The position numbers and the translations under genes are program-made. From contig JAGRHX010000944.1 of the NCBI GenBank assembly GCA_020444775.1, positions 1-8,876 of the forward strand: DNA of 8,876 nt, in the 5' to 3' direction. Numbering within the stretch: the stretch's first letter is position 1; every line of letters begins with the position of its first letter. This DNA is from Gammaproteobacteria bacterium. Lineage in GTDB: Bacteria > Pseudomonadota > Gammaproteobacteria > HK1. The notes below the pieces were generated by a model, which saw only the letters and a program-made list of their open reading frames with translations, did not search any database and was not told where the DNA came from. Below are positions 1-8,876 of the stretch, piece by piece.

Positions 1-2912
1 TGCAGGCCGAAGCCCAGGCCGACGCTGAGGGCCGCCACGAGCCATTGCACATCGGCCCAGGCGACGCCGACCGTGCTGAACGCATAGAGGATGCCGATAG
101 CCGCGATGATGTACTGCATCACCGTGCTGATCGCGTAGCGGCTGCCGAAGTCCAGCGGCAGGCGTTGCAGCACGGCGATCTCCAGCACGCCAGGCAGATT
201 GCGCGCCGCGGCGGTGGTCATGAAGATCACGAACAGCATCACCAGCAGGCCCTGCAGGGTGACCGGCACGCTGTCCATCTGACCGTCCACGCTGGTGGTG
301 TGACGCCACAGCTCGACCTCGTTGAGCACACCGAGCGCCGGTATGACCGCGCTCCACACCAGCCACAGACCGATCAGCATGGCGATGTTGAGCGCCGTGT
401 TGATCAGATGCCGGGTCTGCTCGCCGACCTCCTCGATGTCGATCTGCGGCTCCTCGACGACCGCTGCATCGCTCTCGGGCTCGTTCTGTTGCTGGCGTCG
501 TGCCTCCCAGCGCTCACGGGCCTTTTGCAGGGCATGCTTGCGTCGCGTCACCTGCAACCATCTGAAGACCATGTAGCGCAGCACGATGAGGCCCGCGAAC
601 ATGGCCACCGTGGTCACCAGACGCAGCTCCAGCTGGCGTGCCGTGTAGACATAGCCCAGCGCGGCGAGCACGGCCAACGATACCGGGACCAGGATGGCGG
701 CCGGGTACCAGACCGGACGCAGACGCGACAACCAGCCGTCCGGATGGGCGCTCAGCAGGCTGGCCGGCAGCCCGTACCTGGGATGCAGCAGGCGCCAGGC
801 CAGATAGCTCAGGGCCAAAGTGCTGATCACGAACAGGCTGCGACCGATGCTCTCCCGGTAGGCGGTATTGCTTTGCAGGTCGAAGGCCGTGGCGAGCACC
901 ATTGCTGGCACGCTGACCAGGATCCACCAGTCGATGGTGCGCCGGCTGCGCCGCATGCTGTCGGGGTTCCAGTTGAAGTGAGCCTCACCCAGCCCCGAGG
1001 AGCGCATCACGCCACGCAACAGCATGGCGCCGAAGCACAGCAGGGCGCCGTTGATGAGGCCAGCACCCACCGCGCGACTGAACTCGCCGGCGTGGATGGC
1101 CGAGTCCAGCAGCAGACCGGCGCCACCGAGCAGCAGGAACCAGGGCATCGGAATCAGGATGGTGATGAACAGCGCGTTCAAGGTATGACCGAAACTGTCG
1201 TCGCGAATCCGTCGCATGCGTTCGGTCAGGGCACGCAGGTGCGCGCCGGTACGTCGATTCGACCAGAACAGGTAGACGATCAGCACAACCGTCAGCAACG
1301 AGCTCACCATGTGTATACGCACCTGGCGCAGCAGATCGCCGAGCACTTCGATCCAGACCGTCGGCGTCAGCAGGTAGGCCCAGGCCGCGGGCTGCTCGTA
1401 GACGACCTGCATGCCGAAGGGCCGCACGCTTGGGGTCCAGATCAGGTGGCGGTCCAGGAACGCGCCATACTCGACCGCGACCGCCACCAGCTGGCGTTGC
1501 TCGACATCCATCTCGGTGAGCAGGCGGGATTGATCGGAGTAGGCCCTGGACAGCTGGCCGAGCACCGGCTCACGCTCGGTGAGCAGCGTGCGCACCTCCT
1601 GGCGCATCGACTCCGAGTCGGCGAGACCCGCCTCGCGGAGCACCCGGCCGACCGCCGCCTCCAGATCCACCAGGGCCTGGCGCTGCTCGTCCACCTCGAG
1701 CTGCGCGAGGTTGATGCTGCCGAGCAGCTCGCTGCGCTGTTCCGCATTGACCCGATACCGACGGACATCGGGAAGGCGGTTGCGTTGCTCGCGTAGCACC
1801 TGACCCAGGGTGTCCGAGAGCCGTGACAGCTCCACCCGTTGTCTGGCCGTCTTGAAGCTGCGTCCTATGTCCTCGGCCTCGGACTTGATTCGCAGCAGCT
1901 GCTGGCGGAAGCCCTCGAGACGCTGCAGCTGGTCGGCGAGCGTCTGCGAGAGCCGCGCGTTCTCCCCCGCGACGGCGGCCAACAGAGGGTGCTTGCCCGC
2001 GGCCTCGCGCTGCGCGGCCTCGGCGCGTTTCAGGGCACTTTGAGCCTCGCTCGCGCGCTGCGCAGTGAGCTGCGTCTCCAGGGCCTTGGCCTGCTCGTCC
2101 AGGCGTGTGACCTCGCGTGCCGCCAGGGTCCGTCTGGCCTGCACCAGGCGGGTGCGAATGTCCAGGCTCAACAGCTCCTGCTCGATGCGAGCCAGCTGTG
2201 CAAGTCGTGCTTCCTTACGCGCGGTCAGGGCGAGTGCACGTGCCGCCTTCAGCGCTGCCGGCGCATCCGCGGGCTGGGCACCGTCCTCGTTGTCGATGCG
2301 GGTGATTGCCGCGCGCGCCTCGCTGGCCTCGGCCGCGGCGCGACTCGGTCGATCCTTGAGCTCGGCCAGGGTCTTGTCGGCTTCCGCGACCGTGCTACGC
2401 GCCGCGGCCAGCGCGCTGCGGGTCTCGATCAGACGCTGCTCGACGACGTTGGCGGGGGTTTGGGGGTCGAGCGTAGGGATCGGCGCCGGGCTTGCCGCGA
2501 GGGTCTTCTCCAGGCTCGCCAGCTCTTCCGGACCGTTCTGGATGATGCGTCTGTATTCGTTGGCGGCGCGATCGTGATCCAGCTTCGCCTCGACCCGAGA
2601 GCGCACCGTCCGGTACAGCTCCAGGGTCTGTGTCTGGACGCTGTCCTCGGGGTTGAGGCCCCCCTCCAGCTCCTTGATGCGCGCGTCGATCTGCTCGAGG
2701 CTCAGACCTTCTTGCGGACGGCTGGCCGCCTCACTGTTGCCGCCAATAGCGGTCGCCGGACCTTCCTCGGCGGTGGTGGATCGAGTCTGGGCACTGCCAG
2801 CCGGGCTGTAGGCGAGTCCGAGCAGGACGCTGCAGATCGTCAGTAGCATCGCCAGCGCGGTGGCGACCAGTTCGTCCCGGGCCGATGGGTTCAACGATGT
2901 TCGCGTGGACAA
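1..2912 (-). CDS. MscK/MscM-family large mechanosensitive channel (3' end cut by window edge)
   Basis: About 970 residues are visible, read from a TTG at 2912; the C-terminus lies beyond the left edge. Residues ~16-41 form a signal peptide (hydrophobic ALAMLLTICSVLLGLA, then SPAGSA before Gln42). Residues ~60-500 are Glu/Arg/Gln/Ala-rich and helical, with stretches such as VEQRLIETRSALAAA, as expected for the periplasmic coiled-coil domain of MscK/MscM (MscS_porin type). The first membrane helix is near residue 533 (SSLLTVVLIVYLFW), and about eleven helices follow. The last visible residues, AALSVGLGFGL, match the conserved start of the MscS pore helix TM3; just before it lies MQYIIAAIGILYAFSTVGV, as in E. 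coli MscK. Only the cytoplasmic MscS beta and alpha/beta domains are missing, so full length should be near the ~1,100 residues of E. coli MscK and MscM. The family releases solutes on hypo-osmotic shock, and MscK gating also responds to K+. Which paralogue this is cannot be settled here. Confidence 0.93.
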   Translation of the reverse strand, partial: MSTRTSLNPSARDELVATALAMLLTICSVLLGLAYSPAGSAQTRSTTAEEGPATAIGGNSEAASRPQEGLSLEQIDARIKELEGGLNPEDSVQTQTLELYRTVRSRVEAKLDHDRAANEYRRIIQNGPEELASLEKTLAASPAPIPTLDPQTPANVVEQRLIETRSALAAARSTVAEADKTLAELKDRPSRAAAEASEARAAITRIDNEDGAQPADAPAALKAARALALTARKEARLAQLARIEQELLSLDIRTRLVQARRTLAAREVTRLDEQAKALETQLTAQRASEAQSALKRAEAAQREAAGKHPLLAAVAGENARLSQTLADQLQRLEGFRQQLLRIKSEAEDIGRSFKTARQRVELSRLSDTLGQVLREQRNRLPDVRRYRVNAEQRSELLGSINLAQLEVDEQRQALVDLEAAVGRVLREAGLADSESMRQEVRTLLTEREPVLGQLSRAYSDQSRLLTEMDVEQRQLVAVAVEYGAFLDRHLIWTPSVRPFGMQVVYEQPAAWAYLLTPTVWIEVLGDLLRQVRIHMVSSLLTVVLIVYLFWSNRRTGAHLRALTERMRRIRDDSFGHTLNALFITILIPMPWFLLLGGAGLLLDSAIHAGEFSRAVGAGLINGALLCFGAMLLRGVMRSSGLGEAHFNWNPDSMRRSRRTIDWWILVSVPAMVLATAFDLQSNTAYRESIGRSLFVISTLALSYLAWRLLHPRYGLPASLLSAHPDGWLSRLRPVWYPAAILVPVSLAVLAALGYVYTARQLELRLVTTVAMFAGLIVLRYMVFRWLQVTRRKHALQKARERWEARRQQQNEPESDAAVVEEPQIDIEEVGEQTRHLINTALNIAMLIGLWLVWSAVIPALGVLNEVELWRHTTSVDGQMDSVPVTLQGLLVMLFVIFMTTAAARNLPGVLEIAVLQRLPLDFGSRYAISTVMQYIIAAIGILYAFSTVGVAWADVQWLVAALSVGLGFGL

Positions 2913-2923
2913 GCAGCCTCTCC
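2910..2923 (-). promoter_or_regulatory. Shine-Dalgarno and TTG start of the MscK-like gene
   Basis: On the minus strand GGAGAGG (2923-2917) lies a few bases before TTG (2912-2910). No ATG or GTG occurs in this frame over roughly the preceding 85 bases. The first in-frame ATG inside the gene is codon 22, in the middle of the hydrophobic signal segment; starting there would remove the N-region of the signal peptide. TTG is therefore the best start. It may lower translation, which is inference. Confidence 0.7.
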
Positions 2924-3156
2924 AATGCGAGCGATGACCGGCAAGCAGCGGTCCGGGGCCGGATGGGGCTTGACGATCACGGTCGGTGACCCATCGGCGG
3001 CGGCATGATTGTAGAGTGTACGCTGCTCGATCTGGGGCCGGGCGGGTCACCGCGTCCAGGTCGCGCGGCAAGATGGCACAATGCCGCGCTCATGGTCACG
3101 ATGCCGGCGGGTTCGTGGCCGGTCACACCCGACCCGAACGGAGCCCAACGAAGACG
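2913..3156. other. Divergent intergenic spacer between the channel gene and the nitroreductase gene
   Basis: No convincing gene lies here. The nitroreductase frame stays open upstream to an ATG at 2986, but those residues are Arg/Gly/His-rich and do not resemble the family. Promoters for both directions should be in this spacer. On the minus strand TACAAT (3013-3008) resembles a -10 box about 95 bases before the channel start, but it has no matching -35. On the plus strand TTGACG (2970-2975) resembles a -35 box but has no good -10 at the right spacing. I call no promoter. Confidence 0.5.
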
Positions 3157-3897
3157 ATGAACGTGCCCGATCAGTCCGAAGACCAATCCCATACGCAATT
3201 CTCCCAATCCCAATCCGATGCCGCGCTGAGCGTGGAGCAGGCAATCAAGACCCGCCTGTCCTGTCGGCGTTATCTGGACAAGCCGGTCAGCCGTGAAACG
3301 GTGGAGAAGATGCTGGAGATTGCGCGTTACGCGCCCAGCGGCACCAACATCCAGCCGTGGAAGGTGCACGTCACCATGGGTGAGACACGTCGGCGTCTGT
3401 CCGCGGCCCTGACCGAGGCGTTCTTGAGCGGGCCCGAGGAAGAGCGGGAGTATCAGTACTATCCGACCGATTGGTTCGAGCCCTATCTGGGCAGACGCCG
3501 GGCCTGTGGTTGGGGGCTGTATGGCGCGCTGGGCATCGGCAAGGGCGAGCGTGAGAAGACCCGGGATCAGCATGCCAAGAACTTCGATTTCTTCGGCGCG
3601 CCGGTGGGGCTGATATTCAGCATGGACAAGCGCTTGAATACCGGCAGCTGGCTCGACTACGGCATGTTCTTGCAGAGCGTGATGATCGCGGCCCGTGGTC
3701 TGGGGCTGCACACCTGTGCGCAGGCCGCCTTCTGTGGCTTCCACTCCACCATTCGCGAGGTGCTGGGGATCCCCGACAGCGACCACATCATCTGCGGTAT
3801 GTCGCTGGGCTATGGTGACATGAGCGCTCCGGAGAACATCTGGCGAACCGAGCGCGAGCCGGTGTCGTCGTTCACGACCTGGATGATCGAACCATGA
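3157..3897 (+). CDS. FMN-dependent nitroreductase family protein
   Basis: This is a 246-residue protein of the nitroreductase (NfsB/FMN reductase-like) family, cytosolic flavoproteins that use NAD(P)H to reduce nitro groups, quinones or similar acceptors, usually as dimers. The N-terminal FMN signature is visible: SCRRYLDKPV at residues 35-44 (phosphate-contacting Ser/Arg) and YAPSGTNIQPW at 58-68. GLGLHTCAQA at 181-190 and the end GYGDMSAPENIWRTEREP at 218-235 fit nitrobenzoate/nitrophenol-type reductases, where NxxRTxREP near the C-terminus is common. I chose the ATG at 3157 because homology begins about 25 residues later. ATGs at 2986 and 3073 are in frame but add atypical sequence. The ribosome-binding site is weak (GGAG at 3140-3143, 13 bases away). 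Residues 5-20 are a Gln/Ser/Asp-rich tail. The stop overlaps the start of the hydrolase gene. The substrate is unknown. Confidence 0.9.
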   Translation: MNVPDQSEDQSHTQFSQSQSDAALSVEQAIKTRLSCRRYLDKPVSRETVEKMLEIARYAPSGTNIQPWKVHVTMGETRRRLSAALTEAFLSGPEEEREYQYYPTDWFEPYLGRRRACGWGLYGALGIGKGEREKTRDQHAKNFDFFGAPVGLIFSMDKRLNTGSWLDYGMFLQSVMIAARGLGLHTCAQAAFCGFHSTIREVLGIPDSDHIICGMSLGYGDMSAPENIWRTEREPVSSFTTWMIEP

Positions 3898-4793
3898 GCG
3901 TTGTGCCGGAGCCGCTGGCCGAGGAGCCACGCTACGTGCCGGGCATGTCTCCCGCCGAGTTCGAAGCCCAGGTGCACGCGCGTTGCACGCTGCTGCACAC
4001 CGCGTGCGGCACGGGCAGGCTGGCCTGGCGTCGGTTCGGCGAGCCGGGCCGTCAGCCCCTGATCCTGTTGCATGGTGGATTCGGCTCGTGGCGTCATTTC
4101 ATCCTCAACGTGATACCTCTGAGTCGACACTACTCGGTCTATTGCCTGGATCTGCCCGGGCTCGGTGACTCGGCCGAGCCACCTGGGGAGTACTCGCCCG
4201 GTCCGCTCGCGGAGATCGTCTGGCAGGGTATCCAGACGCTGTTGCCGGATGCCTCCGGGGTGAACATCGCCGGCTTCTCCTTTGGCGGCATCGTCGGCAG
4301 CCACGTGGCCGCCATCGGCGCCGAGCGGGTGGGCCGCTACATCGGTATCGCGCCGGGCGCGCTCGGGATCCGGTCCACGGTCAAGCTCGAGCTGCGCAAG
4401 CAGCGTGCCGACATGAGTGAGGCCGAGCTCGACGCCACCCATCGTCATAACCTCTCGGTGTTGATGCTCGCCGACCCGGAACGCATCGATGCGCTGGCCG
4501 TGTATCTGCAACGCGAGACGGTGCGTCGGGCACGGGTGCGTAGCGGCGACATCCCCTTCACCGATCTGGCGGCGCGCGCGCTCGAGCGTTGCAGCTGTGC
4601 GATCAGTGGTATCTGGGGCTCACGCGACGCCATAGCGGCCGGCGAGGTGCACCTGCGTGAAGCGGTGTTCCGGCGTATCCAACCCGATTGCCGATTCGAG
4701 GTGATCGAGGGCGCCGGCCACTGGGTGATGTACGACAGGCCGGATGCGTTCAATCGGGTGATGCTGGAGCTGCTGGCCAGCCCGGGCCGCTAG
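3894..4793 (+). CDS. Alpha/beta hydrolase fold protein
   Basis: A 299-residue alpha/beta hydrolase with a complete apparent catalytic triad. The oxyanion-hole loop LLHGGFGSWRHF lies at residues 58-69, the nucleophile elbow GFSFGG at 127-132 (Ser129), the likely acid in WGSRDAI at 241-247 (Asp245), and the base in GAGHWVMYDRP at 273-283 (His276). A helical cap domain fits residues ~160-230. There is no signal peptide, so it should be cytosolic. The family covers esterases, C-C bond hydrolases and haloperoxidase-like enzymes, and the sequence does not pick one. Its ATG shares bases with the stop of the nitroreductase gene (ATGA at 3894-3897), which points to translational coupling and probably a joint pathway. 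The N-terminal ~40 residues precede the fold and include PAEFEAQVHARC. The substrate is unknown. Confidence 0.9.
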   Translation: MSVVPEPLAEEPRYVPGMSPAEFEAQVHARCTLLHTACGTGRLAWRRFGEPGRQPLILLHGGFGSWRHFILNVIPLSRHYSVYCLDLPGLGDSAEPPGEYSPGPLAEIVWQGIQTLLPDASGVNIAGFSFGGIVGSHVAAIGAERVGRYIGIAPGALGIRSTVKLELRKQRADMSEAELDATHRHNLSVLMLADPERIDALAVYLQRETVRRARVRSGDIPFTDLAARALERCSCAISGIWGSRDAIAAGEVHLREAVFRRIQPDCRFEVIEGAGHWVMYDRPDAFNRVMLELLASPGR

Positions 4794-4821
4794 CGAATCA
4801 CAGGCCAGAGGTACCCGAGCC

Positions 4822-5283
4822 ATGATCTTCGACCGTCTCAAGCAGATGTTCACCCAGGCCATGGAGGAGGCGGCGAGCGCCGATGCGCGCGCCGCCGAGC
4901 ACGGCCGGCAACTCGCGGTCGCGGCGTTGCTGGTCGAGATGATGCGTGCCGACCGCGATGTGCACCAGGCCGAACGCGACACCGTGGCGCGGGCTCTCAC
5001 CCAGATCTTCTCGTTGCCCGACGAGGAGACCGAGGCGCTGTTGGAGCTCGCGGATTCGCGCGCCGACGATGCCACCTCGCTATTCGAGTTCACCTCGACG
5101 ATCAACGACCGGTTCGAGCCCGACGAGAAGATCGAGGTGGTGGAGATGCTCTGGCGGGTCGCGCATGCCGATGGCGAGGTGGACAAGCACGAGGCCCATC
5201 TGGTCCGCAAGATCGCCGATCTGCTGCATCTTCGCCATCGCGAGTACATCGCGGCCAAGCTACGCGCTGAGAGCCCGAGCTGA
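4822..5283 (+). CDS. TerB-like (TerB/DjlA-type) helical domain protein
   Basis: A 153-residue all-helical acidic protein. Two similar motifs, MRADRDVHQAE (41-51) and AHADGEVDKHE (114-124), match the repeated A-D-G-x-(V/I)-x-x-x-E pattern of the TerB domain (also found in DjlA N-termini), in which the acidic residues may hold a metal ion. The N-terminus MIFDRLKQMF is amphipathic, and there is no signal peptide or membrane helix. It begins 28 bases after the hydrolase stop, with AGAGG at 4807-4811 as a likely ribosome-binding site, so it is probably the last gene of the nitroreductase operon. The tellurite-resistance name comes only from the founding family member. No other ter genes are present, so a role in tellurite resistance should not be assumed. 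Many bacteria carry such single TerB proteins of unknown function. Confidence 0.85.
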   Translation: MIFDRLKQMFTQAMEEAASADARAAEHGRQLAVAALLVEMMRADRDVHQAERDTVARALTQIFSLPDEETEALLELADSRADDATSLFEFTSTINDRFEPDEKIEVVEMLWRVAHADGEVDKHEAHLVRKIADLLHLRHREYIAAKLRAESPS

Positions 5284-5344: not shown

Positions 5345-5351
5345 ACGGCTC

Positions 5352-5424
5352 GATTTCTTCAAGACCCCCGAGTTCTTCAAGACCCCCCGGGTTCTTCAAG
5401 ATCTCCGAGTTCTTCAAGACCGCC
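5352..5424. repeat. Four tandem copies of an ~18-base unit
   Basis: The invariant core TTCTTCAAGA occurs at 5355, 5373, 5392 and 5410, so spacing is 18, 19 and 18 bases. Each unit is close to GAGTTCTTCAAGACCCCC, with copies at 5352-5369, 5370-5387 (plus one extra C), 5389-5406 and 5407-5424, and the start of a fifth (GAGT) at 5425. Each core contains the small dyad TCTT-C-AAGA. The array lies entirely between the convergent TerB-like and cytochrome genes. The one-base length difference and scattered substitutions argue against coding sequence. Replication slippage is the simplest origin; a protein-binding or RNA-processing role is possible but unproven. Confidence 0.85.
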
Positions 5425-5432
5425 GAGTCGAA

Positions 5433-5458
5433 CTGAGCGCGGCTTTGGCTCAGCGCTC
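5433..5458. other. Inverted repeats over the 3' end of the decahaem cytochrome gene
   Basis: Two overlapping perfect six-base stems are possible: CTGAGC (5433-5438) with GCTCAG (5448-5453), or GAGCGC (5435-5440) with GCGCTC (5453-5458). They overlap the cytochrome stop codon at 5450-5452. Neither is followed by a T run on either strand, so I do not call a terminator. They could slow exonucleases at the 3' end of the redox operon transcript or be chance in GC-rich sequence. Confidence 0.35.
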
Positions 5459-7246
5459 GGCCCGCCGGTAGGGTGGGCCTAGATGATGGAACTGGTGGCA
5501 GTCCACGCAGCGGATCCGCACCTCGGCGCGCAGCCGTCCATCGGCCGCGTCCTGACCCACATGACAGCCCTTGCACAGCTCGATGTCGGGGATGATCACG
5601 TCACGTGCGGACGCCGAGGCGGTGGCCTTGTGGCAGTCGTTGCAGCCAATCTGTTGATGACGACGATGGTCGAAGCGGGCGAACGCGAACCATTGCTCGG
5701 CGACCCGCAGCGGCGCGGTGGACCAACCAGCAGATGACCCGGTCGCGCCGGCCGTCGCACTATGCGTCGCTCCATCCGGCGCGCTGATCTCGTGGCACAG
5801 GCCACAGGCCTGCTCGCCGAAGGCCGGGTCCTGGACCCGCGCCTGGATACGCGCCAGCGCGTCATCACCCAGCGGCTCGTCCGGGTGCACCGTGGCGTCC
5901 AGATCCGCGAACCATGTGGCGAGATGCTCGCCGCGCGCCGCGGCGTCCTCGCCCGCGCGGGCCGCGGCCCGTTGCAGACGTGCAGGCCAGTCGCCGGCCA
6001 CTAGCGCTGCGGTCAGCATGTTGGCGGTGCTCTGCGTGAACAGCGTGGCCCGATCGTGCGGCAGCCGGGTGCGCTCATCGTCGATGTCGAGCGCCAGCCG
6101 GTGACAGTCGGCGCAATGTGCCTGATAGCGTACCGGGCGAAAACCGGTGCCGTCCGGCTCACGATCGTGACAATCGGCGCAGCCGAATTTCCAACGGCCC
6201 AGGGTCGGGTGCCTGACCCCGTCCACCGCGCCGCCATGGGCCTTGTGCGCATAGTTCAGATTCGAGCGATCGATGGCGGGCGCCAGGGCCCGTTTACCCC
6301 ACGTTTGAATCGGACCCTCGGCCAGCAGCCGGTAGCCAGCCAGCCTGAACGGTGGATGACCCTGCTCGAAACCGCTGACCGCCAGCAGCAGCGAGCCGGG
6401 TTTGTGGGCCCGCGGATCGGCATGGCAGGCTATGCAGAATGCATCGCTGTTGCGGGTGAGCTGGCGGGCTCCGCTGTGCTCCTCGTGACAGTCCCGGCAT
6501 TCGCCGGCGGCGCCCGCATGGGGCCCTCCGGCCGGTGTGGGCGCCGTCGAGCTCAGACCGTGGCGGGCCAGATCGCGGTGGCAATCCAGACAGCGAGCAC
6601 TGGCGACCGGCTGGAACGGGGCCGTATGACAGACACGGCACTGCTCGGCGAAGAAGCCGTGCGCGTTGGCGCTGTGACCGGCGCTCCACAGCTCTCGCCA
6701 TGTCGCCCAGGATGAGGCCGGAGATCGAGCCGTCAGCAGCGCCGGTCGGGTCGATTCGCCCTGCACCAGATCGCCGATCAGCGGTAGCAGACCGAAGACC
6801 ACCAGCACTGTCAGGGCCAGCACGGTACCGAGCACCCGTTTGCGCAGCAGTGGGTTGCGGCCCTGGCCCAGCGCTGGTGGCATCTGCACGGGTGATTGCG
6901 GCAGCGTCTGCACCAGCTCGACGCTGCAGGCGAGGTCGTGTTCCTCGCCCGGATCGACGATACGTATCTCGTAGGGACCTATACGAACCGAGTCGTCGAT
7001 GCGCAGACGCGCGCCCGGCACCGGTGTGCCGTTCAGCTCGATCGCCTGACTGCCGGTCGCCACCAGACGCAGACCGTCGTCGTCGGTGAAGATGCTCGCG
7101 GCGTGCAGGGCAACGCGTGGATCGGGGAGGAATATCTCGTTGCCGGTACCCCGCCCGATCCGCAGGCTGTGTGCCTCGATGCTCACCTCGCGGGCCAGTC
7201 GGGTCGCACTACCGGCGCGGCTGAGCTGGATGATCCTGCAACGCAT
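5450..7246 (-). CDS. FHA domain-TM-decahaem c-type cytochrome fusion
   Basis: A 598-residue protein in three parts. Residues ~1-98 are an FHA domain: LRIGRGTGNEIFL at 28-40, LHAASI at 47-52, IELNGTPV at 69-76. The canonical FHA phosphate-contact Ser, three residues before His48, is Val45 here, so phosphothreonine binding is doubtful. Residues ~138-160 form one membrane helix preceded by RKR (135-137), which puts the FHA domain in the cytoplasm and the rest in the periplasm. Ten CxxCH haem c motifs follow, with first Cys at 203, 219, 250, 271, 356, 378, 481, 535, 558 and 580, grouped 4+2+4. At least nineteen other His in this part can act as distal ligands, including the cytochrome c3/c7-like FDHRRH before haem 8. 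The start lies five bases after the stop of the cytochrome b-like gene with no clear ribosome-binding site, suggesting coupling. Likely role: periplasmic electron carrier. Its redox partner is unknown. Confidence 0.92.
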   Translation of the reverse strand: MRCRIIQLSRAGSATRLAREVSIEAHSLRIGRGTGNEIFLPDPRVALHAASIFTDDDGLRLVATGSQAIELNGTPVPGARLRIDDSVRIGPYEIRIVDPGEEHDLACSVELVQTLPQSPVQMPPALGQGRNPLLRKRVLGTVLALTVLVVFGLLPLIGDLVQGESTRPALLTARSPASSWATWRELWSAGHSANAHGFFAEQCRVCHTAPFQPVASARCLDCHRDLARHGLSSTAPTPAGGPHAGAAGECRDCHEEHSGARQLTRNSDAFCIACHADPRAHKPGSLLLAVSGFEQGHPPFRLAGYRLLAEGPIQTWGKRALAPAIDRSNLNYAHKAHGGAVDGVRHPTLGRWKFGCADCHDREPDGTGFRPVRYQAHCADCHRLALDIDDERTRLPHDRATLFTQSTANMLTAALVAGDWPARLQRAAARAGEDAAARGEHLATWFADLDATVHPDEPLGDDALARIQARVQDPAFGEQACGLCHEISAPDGATHSATAGATGSSAGWSTAPLRVAEQWFAFARFDHRRHQQIGCNDCHKATASASARDVIIPDIELCKGCHVGQDAADGRLRAEVRIRCVDCHQFHHLGPPYRRAER

Positions 7247-7251
7247 CGTCG

Positions 7252-8097
7252 CTACCAGTAGTAGTGGACCGAAACCACGTGCAGGAGCAGCGCGGCAAGC
7301 AGGGCGACGCTGAGCGGTACGTGCGCGAACAGCCAGATTTCGAGCAGGGTGCTCATCCGGATCTCGCTTCGGGCCTTCTCCAGCAGGGTCTGCTTGCGGG
7401 TGAGCAAGCCGATCAGTCGGCGCAATGCCGCGCTGTCGGCGGCGCCGATGGACTGCACCTCGGCCTGCGCCACGCGCAGCGCCTCACGAGTGGCGCATGG
7501 TTGCAGAGCGGGCAGCATGCGTTGCAGCAGATTGCCGGCGATGCGTGTCTGGTGGCTGGCCCGATGCACGGCCTGATTGACGCGGTCGGGCAGGTTCATG
7601 CTCTCGGTCCGACATTCGGCGTCGATACCGGTGATCTGGTTGAGCATCTCGTCAATCGACAGACCGCCGCGGTTGCGGGTCATCATCGCCGGATAGCGAC
7701 GATAGGCGAGCACACCCAGGATGCCGCTGAGCACGCAGGCCAGGGTCAGCAGATAGGCGAGCAGGTGGACGTTCGGACCGAACTCCAGGCCGCTGTGGGC
7801 GGTGACGATCACCGGCAGGGCACAGCCCAGATAGACGTGCGCCGACAGCCAGCCGCTGAGCGGGCGCCGGCCATGCTCATAGCGTCGCTTGCGGATCCCG
7901 AACCAGCTCAGCCAGAGGATGAGCGCCGCGCCGATACAGCCCAGCACATAACCGAGCGGCGTGTCGCCGCGAATCACGCCGAACGGCGGCTCGTCCAGCC
8001 ACAGCGCCAGCAGGCACAGCAGCGCAAGGCCAGCGGCTATCCACAGATAGCGCCTGCGCCGGTAGGCAAGAAAGGACTCGTGTGGCAGTGAGCTCAT
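7252..8097 (-). CDS. Membrane protein with cytochrome b-like di-haem His pairs
   Basis: A 281-residue membrane protein with about five helices near residues 18-34, 49-67, 84-101, 112-131 and 252-277. His87 and His101 in helix 3, and His259 and His273 in helix 5, are each 14 apart. This is the i/i+14 spacing that lets two helices hold two stacked b haems in respiratory cytochromes b. His111 and His278 near the membrane faces are extra candidates. Positive clusters (RRRR at 13-16, IRKRRYEHGRR at 68-78, YRRYPAMMTRNR at 132-143) put the N-terminus, the helix 2-3 loop and a ~115-residue hydrophilic loop (~133-250) in the cytoplasm. The C-terminus HYYW is then periplasmic. I infer that it moves electrons between the iron-sulfur protein encoded just upstream and the decahaem protein encoded just downstream; a quinone site is possible. 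No named family is recognised, and the haem assignment rests on His spacing alone. Confidence 0.8.
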   Translation of the reverse strand: MSSLPHESFLAYRRRRYLWIAAGLALLCLLALWLDEPPFGVIRGDTPLGYVLGCIGAALILWLSWFGIRKRRYEHGRRPLSGWLSAHVYLGCALPVIVTAHSGLEFGPNVHLLAYLLTLACVLSGILGVLAYRRYPAMMTRNRGGLSIDEMLNQITGIDAECRTESMNLPDRVNQAVHRASHQTRIAGNLLQRMLPALQPCATREALRVAQAEVQSIGAADSAALRRLIGLLTRKQTLLEKARSEIRMSTLLEIWLFAHVPLSVALLAALLLHVVSVHYYW

Positions 8098-8109
8098 CTG
8101 GCCGGCCGC

Positions 8110-8876
8110 TCAGGTGCGCGCGACCAGCGCGAAGAAGTCCTCCGGACGGACCCGCGCTGCGGCCCCGGTCGGGCAGGCACGCACGCAGGCCGGCCCACCG
8201 GTGAGGCCGGTGCACATGTCGCATTTGACCGCGAGCTTGGCCTGGCTCTCTTCATTGCCGGCCCTTCTCTGGCCGTTCCACGAGCCCAGCAGGCGGGACA
8301 GGAATCCGCTCGGCCCGGGGCGTGGCGCGGCGAGCTGGATGACGCCATAGGGGCAGTTGCGCACACAGTTGCCACAGCCTATGCAGGCGTCGTTGACATA
8401 GACCTCGCCGCTTTGCGAGCGATGGATGGCATCCGGCGGACAGTCGCTCATGCAGTACGGATGCTCGCAGTGGCGGCAGGAGGTCGGCACGTGCAGATTC
8501 GCGTAGCGTGGCCCCGATTCCCGGTCCAGGCGCGACACACCTTGATGGGTGCCGGCGCAGGCTCGCTCGCAGTTGTCACAACGGATGCAGATGGATTCGT
8601 CGATGATCAGCACGTCCGTGGCCTCGCCCAGCCCCTGCTGGAGCAGGAACTCGATGACGCTGCTCGCCTCCGGCTGCGCGCTCAGGCTCTCGTTGCGACT
8701 GATCCTCTCCCTGAACTTGTCCTCCACGTCACGACGCAGTCGCGGGCTCTGCTCGAGCAGCGCCTTGACCGCCTCGCCCTCTATACGAATGGTCTCGGTG
8801 CCGTTGGCCGCGGCGCGCACGGTCGCCGATCGCGGCGTGTCCGAGACCAGCGCCATCTCGCCCACGTAGTTGCCGG
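8110..8876 (-). CDS. cNMP-binding domain fused to a four-[4Fe-4S] ferredoxin module (5' end cut by window edge)
   Basis: The visible 254 residues begin inside a cyclic-nucleotide-binding domain; the start is beyond the right edge. GNYVGEMALVSDTPRSATVRA keeps the phosphate-binding cassette, including the GE pair and the PRSA arginine and serine that contact ribose and cyclic phosphate in CRP-like domains. After a helical linker come sixteen Cys, all in cluster motifs: 96/99/102/106, 133/136/141/145, 164/167/170/174 and 218/221/230/234 (visible numbering). The layout resembles the four-cluster DmsB/HycB-type electron-transfer subunits. The segment GPSGFLSRLLGSW (187-199) before the last cluster is amphipathic and could contact the membrane. 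There is no twin-arginine signal in the visible part, but the N-terminus is unseen. The stop is 12 bases before the cytochrome b-like gene. Probable role: cytoplasmic electron input or output for the membrane and decahaem proteins, possibly gated by cAMP or a related nucleotide, which is inference. Confidence 0.9.
   Translation of the reverse strand, partial: GNYVGEMALVSDTPRSATVRAAANGTETIRIEGEAVKALLEQSPRLRRDVEDKFRERISRNESLSAQPEASSVIEFLLQQGLGEATDVLIIDESICIRCDNCERACAGTHQGVSRLDRESGPRYANLHVPTSCRHCEHPYCMSDCPPDAIHRSQSGEVYVNDACIGCGNCVRNCPYGVIQLAAPRPGPSGFLSRLLGSWNGQRRAGNEESQAKLAVKCDMCTGLTGGPACVRACPTGAAARVRPEDFFALVART

What the first reader, a model, noticed from the sequence alone, without database searches (positions are those of the whole stretch)
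5450..8876. Three-gene transmembrane electron conduit with two signalling domains
The genes are 12 and 5 bases apart and encode, in order, a cNMP-binding/four-[4Fe-4S] protein, a five-helix protein with two i/i+14 His pairs, and an FHA-TM-decahaem cytochrome. Together they supply an unbroken redox chain from cytoplasm through membrane to periplasm. What is unusual is that the cytoplasmic ends of the chain carry a second-messenger domain and a phospho-signalling fold, as if electron flow were switched allosterically and not by transcription. No catalytic subunit such as a molybdopterin enzyme or hydrogenase is visible, so the set may pass electrons to or from a soluble partner, an outer-membrane conduit, or an upstream gene beyond the window.
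Basis: partly seen in the sequence, partly recalled or inferred. Interest (0 to 1): 0.82.

Follow-up and report, generated by a model that had tools for sequence, protein, structure and literature searches.

The report
Electron conduit with cyclic-nucleotide-binding reductase
Three neighbouring bacterial genes look like a wire that carries electrons from inside the cell across its inner membrane, and relatives suggest the wire is fed by NAD(P)H and may be switched by the signal molecule cAMP.

Summary
The three genes and their features are real and conserved. Gene 1 is only the 3' end of its reading frame: the contig cuts it. Full-length relatives are ~800-aa proteins with an NAD(P)H/FAD domain, two cyclic-nucleotide domains and four [4Fe-4S] clusters, so the "missing" electron input is most likely a fused flavin reductase. 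Gene 2 has every motif published for the inner-membrane protein of the proposed PCC3/PCC4 extracellular-electron conduits (He et al. 2017). Gene 3 is an FHA-TM-decahaem cytochrome. Among 369 genomes the three families occur in the same 16 (a 17th is cut by a contig end); order is kept in 26 of 31 copies, and two genomes fuse genes 1 and 2. New here: the relatives' cyclic-nucleotide sites keep their ligand residues, and cyclase genes (7 copies, 0.6 expected) or phosphodiesterase genes (8, 0.1 expected, one clade) lie within 5 kb of 15 of 31 copies; 16 have neither. Many relatives continue into outer-membrane-type genes; the window does not. Best reading: an NAD(P)H-fed, probably cyclic-nucleotide-gated transmembrane electron conduit, a new variant of the PCC4-type inner-membrane module. 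Gating and direction are inferred, cofactor distances untested, FHA phosphate reading doubtful.

The parts
8110..8874 (-). Gene 1, 3' part only (5' end lost at the contig end): C-terminal fragment of a NAD(P)H/FAD - 2x cNMP - 4x[4Fe-4S] reductase
   Evidence: full-length relatives
8749..8874 (-). second half of cyclic-nucleotide domain 2 (Glu and Arg of the phosphate-binding cassette present)
   Evidence: role of the residues recalled from CAP/PKA
8173..8589 (-). four [4Fe-4S] cluster motifs (16 Cys), DmsB/HycB-type arrangement
7252..8097 (-). Gene 2: five-helix protein, probable di-haem b cytochrome, with the IMP motifs WX3HX13H (W83-H87-H101; W255-H259-H273) and SGXXG (124-128)
5450..7246 (-). 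Gene 3: FHA - TM - decahaem c-type cytochrome
6914..7246 (-). FHA fold (residues 1-111), predicted cytoplasmic
   Evidence: side of the membrane inferred
6764..6853 (-). single membrane helix (residues 132-161)
5483..6661 (-). ten-haem domain: 10 CxxCH plus 10 invariant extra His (probable distal ligands)

Best explanation
The operon encodes an inner-membrane electron conduit of the kind proposed for the IMP modules of PCC3/PCC4. NAD(P)H reduces FAD in the (here truncated) N-terminal domain of gene 1; electrons pass through four [4Fe-4S] clusters to two b haems of gene 2 and across the membrane to the ten haems of gene 3 in the periplasm, then to a periplasmic or outer-membrane acceptor. In many relatives the next genes supply a plausible outer-membrane exit. 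Two cyclic-nucleotide domains lie in the sequence between the flavin domain and the Fe-S domain and probably gate the flavin-to-Fe-S step in response to cAMP, made or destroyed by enzymes encoded close by in about half of the relatives. Shown by computation: domain content, conservation of cofactor-ligand residues, gene order, co-occurrence, fusion, neighbour enrichment. Inferred: cofactor occupancy, direction of flow, cAMP binding and gating, acceptor, and that the window's lost 5' part is like its relatives'.
For: Ligand residues: 16 Cys, 4 His (b haems), 10 CxxCH + 10 His invariant in the alignments. Full-length relatives carry Pyr_redox_2/3, two cNMP domains and Fer4; the NAD(P) motifs are kept and a CxxC before the Fe-S part is found in 0 of 26; best PDB sequence relatives of the flavin part are YpdA/Bdr, then TrxR-type enzymes including ferredoxin-NADP reductase. 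Co-occurrence at high score: 16 all three / 1 two / 352 none of 369 genomes. Order kept in 26 of 31 copies. Gene 1-gene 2 fusion in L064 and L065. All three IMP motifs in 116 of the 120 listed homologues (of 979 found). cNMP ligand residues: domain 1 Glu and Arg 26 of 26, domain 2 Glu 23 and Arg 25 of 26. CHASE2 genes within 5 kb: 6 against 0.35 expected; within 20 kb: 15, near 14 of 31 copies, against 1.02. Class III phosphodiesterases within 5 kb of 8 of 31 copies against 0.10. Control COX1: 0 CHASE2 (0.53 expected) and 0 phosphodiesterase (0.18 expected) within 5 kb of 73 loci. A distant relative (L066) has a separate, unrelated NAD-binding/2Fe-2S reductase beside cNMP-FeS, IMP-like and decahaem genes.
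Against: The NAD(P)H domain and the first cNMP domain are not in the window. No cyclase, phosphodiesterase, porin or second cytochrome was seen in the window. 16 of 31 copies have no cAMP gene within 5 kb, and all 8 phosphodiesterase cases group together on the tree, so may be one event. The phosphodiesterases score under the curated cut-offs (CpdA 66-87 against 225 bits, SpdA 127-141 against 400), so their substrate is unsure. He et al. propose inward flow to quinone. Structure searches did not place gene 2 in a known fold. Cofactor distances were not measured.
Confidence: 0.62

Rival explanations
1. An electron-uptake module: electrons from an outer donor enter through the decahaem protein and reach the quinone pool at gene 2 (the model He et al. 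2017 drew for PCC3/PCC4); gene 1 is a side branch.
For: Gene 2 has all published IMP motifs; an FHA-labelled ten-haem protein is listed in 27 of 87 iron-oxidising Gallionellaceae genomes (PMC10734462 Table 1); the b haems could meet quinone.
Against: The NAD(P)H/FAD + four-cluster protein is the neighbour of gene 2 in 26 of 31 copies and fused to it in two of them; uphill reduction of NADP+ from a weak donor has no evident energy input here (general knowledge).
Confidence: 0.2
2. A periplasmic reductant supply: NAD(P)H electrons serve a soluble periplasmic enzyme, not the outside. (Compatible with the best explanation up to the last step.)
For: The window has no porin or outer cytochrome; 29 of 30 host genomes match the haem-copper oxidase family (which also holds NO reductases), so the hosts probably respire oxygen.
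Against: 18, 16 and 15 of 36 mapped loci carry the lipoprotein-like, barrel-like and second decahaem families.
Confidence: 0.3
3. The cNMP and FHA domains are structural relics, with no signalling role. (Concerns the gating step only.)
For: FHA Ser kept in only 3 of 27 rows, and the window also lacks the His of SxxH; 16 of 31 copies have no cAMP gene within 5 kb.
Against: cNMP ligand residues almost fully conserved; cyclase and phosphodiesterase linkage; one copy (L044) is followed by a PP2C phosphatase and a Ser/Thr kinase.
Confidence: 0.25

Closest known systems
PCC4 subgroup II / PCC3 inner-membrane protein (IMP) modules, He et al. 2017 (PMC5566968)
   Same: Five-helix IMP with SGXXG and two WX3HX13H; Fe-S gene upstream of IMP; ten-haem cytochrome; Fe-S+IMP annotated as one gene in one published genome, as fused in L064/L065.
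   Different: Fused NAD(P)H/FAD domain in relatives; two cNMP domains and an FHA domain (the terms cyclic nucleotide, FHA and cAMP give 0 hits in that paper's main text; its supplements could not be read); no porin in the window.
'Forkhead-associated protein', 10 CXXCH, cluster 403 of the Gallionellaceae pangenome (PMC10734462)
   Same: Ten haem motifs and an FHA label.
   Different: A table line under 'Other'; no operon or function in the passages read; sequences not compared.
NADPH oxidases / ferric reductases (FRD domain)
   Same: NAD(P)H to flavin to two b haems held by two HX13H pairs (motif likeness noted by He et al.).
   Different: Unrelated flavin domain (TrxR/YpdA type), Fe-S clusters in between, decahaem partner; no PF01794 match.
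YpdA/Bdr and ferredoxin-NADP reductase of the thioredoxin-reductase superfamily
   Same: Flavin part: best solved sequence relatives; no CxxC in 26 of 26.
   Different: Fused to cNMP and four-cluster Fe-S domains.
DmsB/HycB/HydN-type four-cluster ferredoxin subunits
   Same: Four-cluster Cys pattern.
   Different: Fused, and paired with an IMP and a decahaem protein; no molybdenum enzyme gene seen in the window.

Membership tests
PCC3/PCC4 inner-membrane protein (IMP) | Five membrane helices | tested here: met
   Model mean pLDDT 87.9; long helices 16-34, 47-75, 80-102, 110-142, 219-279; membrane placement inferred from hydrophobicity
PCC3/PCC4 inner-membrane protein (IMP) | WX3HX13H on helices 3 and 5 | tested here: met
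   W83/W255 and the four His conserved, His and W83, W255 invariant in 23 rows; both motifs in 118 of the 120 listed homologues
PCC3/PCC4 inner-membrane protein (IMP) | SGXXG on helix 4 | tested here: met
   S124 G125 G128 invariant in 23 rows; 117 of the 120 listed
PCC3/PCC4 inner-membrane protein (IMP) | Sequence homology to a named PCC4 IMP | not tested
   No named PCC4 sequence was fetched
PCC4 (whole system) | Fe-S gene directly upstream of IMP (subgroup II) | tested here: met
PCC4 (whole system) | Porin in the cluster | tested here: not met
   None recognised in the window, which ends upstream at the contig edge; relatives have a barrel-like gene in 16 of 36 maps
PCC4 (whole system) | Cytochromes with 4, 5 and 10 haems | tested here: not met
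   Only the 10-haem one in the window; a C554-type, mostly 4-haem family in 12 of 36 maps and a 5-CxxCH gene in L001
Thioredoxin reductase | Redox-active CxxC | tested here: not met
   CxxC in 0 of 26 full-length relatives; this domain is not in the window
Cyclic-nucleotide-binding domain (CAP/PKA type) | Conserved Glu and Arg of the phosphate-binding cassette | tested here: met
   Domain 2 of the window has both; relatives 23-26 of 26; roles recalled
FHA domain | FHA fold | tested here: met
   Foldseek E 2e-6, prob 1.00, FHA entries fill the rows listed
FHA domain | Phosphothreonine-contact residues (Arg, Ser, Asn; recalled) | tested here: inconclusive
   Arg 26/27, Ser 3/27, Asn 13/27; window has Arg and Asn, not the Ser or the His
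Ferric reductase / NOX membrane domain | Recognisable PF01794 or fold match | tested here: inconclusive

The most novel reading that the evidence does not exclude
A bacterial transmembrane (in many relatives trans-envelope) electron conduit whose flow is gated after translation by cAMP: two intact cyclic-nucleotide domains are built into the NAD(P)H-oxidising subunit, and adenylate cyclases (in one part of the tree) or cAMP phosphodiesterases (in another clade) are encoded in or next to the operon; an FHA domain on the cytochrome may add a second, kinase-linked input in some lineages.
Probability: 0.45. Interest if true: 0.88.

Novelty: new variant of a known kind. Interest (0 to 1): 0.66.

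Why it matters
Known control of extracellular electron transfer by cAMP is, to my recollection, transcriptional. A redox enzyme that binds cyclic nucleotides on the same chain that moves the electrons would be a direct valve on electron export. It also gives the PCC3/PCC4-type inner-membrane protein, whose function is only proposed, a concrete candidate electron donor, NAD(P)H, which can be tested in cultured bacteria such as Sphingobium herbicidovorans, where the operon is plasmid-borne.

Tried and rejected
Searching the window's own genome: none is held; the upstream DNA could not be read because the contig ends at 8876 (inferred).

Gene 1 as a thioredoxin reductase: rejected, CxxC in 0 of 26 relatives. 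Gene 2 as a PF01292 b561: only 13 bits, and the His pairs lie two per helix; some listed homologues do carry a precomputed PF01292, so a remote tie is not excluded. Fold search of gene 2 against the PDB: no match with E under 0.001; top rows are helical bundles; the sequence-profile search found nothing credible. The model of gene 3 is poor beyond the FHA domain and TM helix (mean pLDDT 66), so haem positions were not read from it. No model file appeared in the Python box when I looked, so cofactor distances were not measured; a three-protein complex was not modelled.

PP2C/kinase linkage as a general rule: rejected; of 30 genomes, PP2C lies beside the operon in G176 and about 9 kb away in G011. 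Literature: eight searches showed me no paper on a cNMP-binding or FHA-bearing conduit of this kind; four of them listed only part of the papers found (15 of 401, 15 of 104, 15 of 512, 10 of 23), so this is weak evidence of absence. Nearest: PMC5566968 and PMC10734462. What I saw: PMC5566968 passages plus section 3 part 5; PMC10734462, PMC13322032 and PMC12442390 passages only; all others search listings only. Supplementary files were not readable.

Limits of the counts: the genome searches score only a few first-look candidates per genome (3, 2 and 6), so copies per genome are lower bounds. The enrichment tests assume uniform placement and independent genomes; relatedness is not corrected; contig breaks lower the observed numbers. 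Merged before the counts: two split CHASE2 hits (G216:C117, G231:C179); second pieces of one cyclase gene in G030:C167, G343:C37 and G247:C28. For G231 the operon position is only the gene 2 fragment.
Full report
WHAT IS THERE. On the - strand three ORFs follow one another with gaps of 12 and 5 bases: 8874-8110, 8097-7252, 7246-5450. The first has no start in the window. The protein database gives a contig length of 8876 for the window's own third protein, which implies that the window is the entire contig and gene 1 is cut. Within the fragment lie the second half of a cyclic-nucleotide domain and four [4Fe-4S] motifs.

THE MISSING END OF GENE 1. A Thalassolituus metagenome-assembled genome (L002) carries the complete counterpart, 843 aa. 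A search with its cNMP/Fe-S half found 6614 proteins; of the 120 listed, 113 are 720-880 aa and all but about six shorter ones carry Pyr_redox_2 besides cNMP and Fer4 domains. One full-length copy next to the other two genes was scanned: Pyr_redox_3 111.6 bits, Pyr_redox_2 80.1, two cNMP stretches 130.3, several Fer4 models. In 26 full-length rows the NAD(P) fold keeps GxGD...E (26 of 26) and N-R (25 and 25 of 26), and no CxxC precedes the Fe-S part, so it is not a classical thioredoxin reductase; the closest solved sequence relatives of that part are YpdA/Bdr, then TrxR-type enzymes including ferredoxin-NADP reductase. NADPH rather than NADH is suggested by the Arg after the second strand (recalled rule).

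GENE 2. The motifs published for the IMP of PCC3 and PCC4, namely five helices, SGXXG on helix 4 and WX3HX13H on helices 3 and 5 (He et al. 2017, PMC5566968, section 3 part 5), are all present and invariant in 23 aligned rows, occur together in 116 of the 120 listed homologues, and fall on the expected helices of a confident model. He et al. argue from the same motifs for two b haems. Fold search neither confirmed nor excluded a ferric-reductase or b561 relation.

GENE 3. Ten CxxCH and ten other His are invariant in 27 rows, as expected for ten bis-His haems. The N-terminus folds as an FHA domain in the model, followed by one membrane helix. The Gallionellaceae pangenome lists a 'Forkhead-associated protein' with 10 CXXCH in 27 of 87 iron oxidisers under 'Other' (PMC10734462 Table 1, passages).

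CO-OCCURRENCE AND ORDER. In 369 genomes of the class of G001, full-length FHA-cytochromes (over 430 bits; next best 60) occur in 16 genomes (17 copies), reductases (over 290 bits; G019's 207-bit hit covers only the flavin part) in 17, gene 2 (over 270 bits; next best under 100) in 17: the same 16 plus G231, whose gene 2 match is cut near a contig end and which gave no FHA-cytochrome match. 352 genomes have none above these scores. In 398 genomes of the phylum, gene 2 exceeds 250 bits in 15, two of them already counted; the 13 new ones all have the reductase upstream and the FHA-cytochrome downstream, and in two (L064, L065) reductase and gene 2 are one open frame. Of 31 copies in 30 genomes, 26 have the three in order on one strand, with up to 815 bases between profile matches (usually under 80). 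The exceptions are G007, G040 and G231 (pieces on different contigs) and two copies in G114, where a cyclase-TPR-FecR block lies between reductase and gene 2 (in one of them about 6 kb of the stretch was not mapped). A named example is Sphingobium herbicidovorans plasmid pMSHV, B6S01_RS18455-18450-18445; eleven further Sphingobium sp. plasmid records match gene 2, of which one region was looked at and has the same layout.

SIGNALLING. Both cNMP domains keep Glu and Arg of the phosphate-binding cassette (domain 1: 26 and 26 of 26; domain 2: 23 and 25 of 26). Around the operon lie CHASE2-cyclase genes. In G169 cyclase, TPR-type, FecR-type, reductase, gene 2, gene 3 and the outer-membrane-type genes follow on one strand (TPR and FecR there assigned by clustering with scanned L048 proteins). 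Over 30 genomes, CHASE2 genes lie within 5 kb of 6 of 31 copies (expected 0.35) and within 20 kb of 14 (15 genes, expected 1.02). All class III cyclases: 7 of 31 copies within 5 kb, expected 0.61. Class III phosphodiesterases (CpdA/SpdA/Rv0805-like, under the curated cut-offs; the counterpart in Sphingobium sp. TomTYG46 is annotated CpdA) lie within 5 kb of 8 copies, expected 0.10; of 20 such genes in 18 genomes, the other 12 lie elsewhere. Fifteen of 31 copies have one or the other within 5 kb; 16 have neither. As control, 73 COX1 loci in 29 of the 30 genomes have 0 CHASE2 (0.53 expected) and 0 phosphodiesterase (0.18 expected) within 5 kb, and 2 CHASE2 (1.94 expected) and 0 phosphodiesterase (0.67) within 20 kb. 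On the gene-3 tree the nine phosphodiesterase rows (eight genomes and L072) group together (node support 93/67), perhaps one event, while the six cyclase rows are interspersed with unlinked rows on the other side, over weakly supported branches; the window pairs with P0122 and lies near a long branch. The cyclases of L046, L048, L050 and L058 have a Lys three residues before GD that I recall as adenine-specifying; the cut L039 frame shows none. FHA: Arg kept 26 of 27, Ser 3, Asn 13; the window lacks the Ser and the His. L044 has a PP2C phosphatase (over its curated cut-off) and a Ser/Thr kinase directly downstream of gene 3.

WHERE THE ELECTRONS GO. Of 36 mapped loci (window included), 18 carry an HbpS-like family that starts like a lipoprotein (three members scanned: L037, L040, L043), 16 a family of mostly ~600-740 aa whose members end in Tyr in 15 of 16 (the other is cut), like outer-membrane barrels, and 15 a second decahaem family, 1130-1383 aa with 10 CxxCH in 13 and cut in two, with LVIVD repeats in the one scanned. 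The window has none of these; downstream it meets a convergent TerB gene. A distant relative, L066, has a tetrahaem gene, a cNMP-FeS gene without flavin domain, an IMP-like gene, a decahaem gene without FHA match, and an unrelated NAD-binding/2Fe-2S reductase: close to the layout He et al. describe for PCC4, again with an NAD(P)H-type reductase at hand.

VERDICT. It belongs beside PCC4-type modules as a new variant, not as a member of PCC4, since the window shows no porin or further cytochromes. Gating, direction and acceptor are inference.

Noticed in passing
window 5351-5428: 18-base tandem repeat, 4.3 copies, between the convergent stops of gene 3 and the TerB gene.
   Followed up: no
window 3157-5283, + strand: Nitroreductase, alpha/beta hydrolase and TerB genes, convergent with the operon; link to it unknown.
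   Followed up: partly
window 3-3071, - strand: Large membrane protein running off the contig end; not scanned, resembles MscK-type channels from memory.
   Followed up: no
L036 13349-17601; same family in L037, L058, L068: Cytochrome c maturation gene ccmF (L036 scanned) near the operon or its distant relative.
   Followed up: partly
L047, L053, L054, L058, L060: Glutamate dehydrogenase-type gene as a recurrent neighbour (family of 5 loci; L060, L047 and L054 confirmed by Pfam).
   Followed up: partly
L068 9194-11891; L069 8827-13617: Distant gene-2 homologues beside cytochromes with 24 CxxCH, like the published PCC3.
   Followed up: no
L066 1460-8498: PCC4-like cluster with a separate NAD-binding/2Fe-2S reductase.
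   Followed up: partly
L043 6799-9888: Caspase-domain/Sel1 protein directly upstream of the reductase.
   Followed up: no
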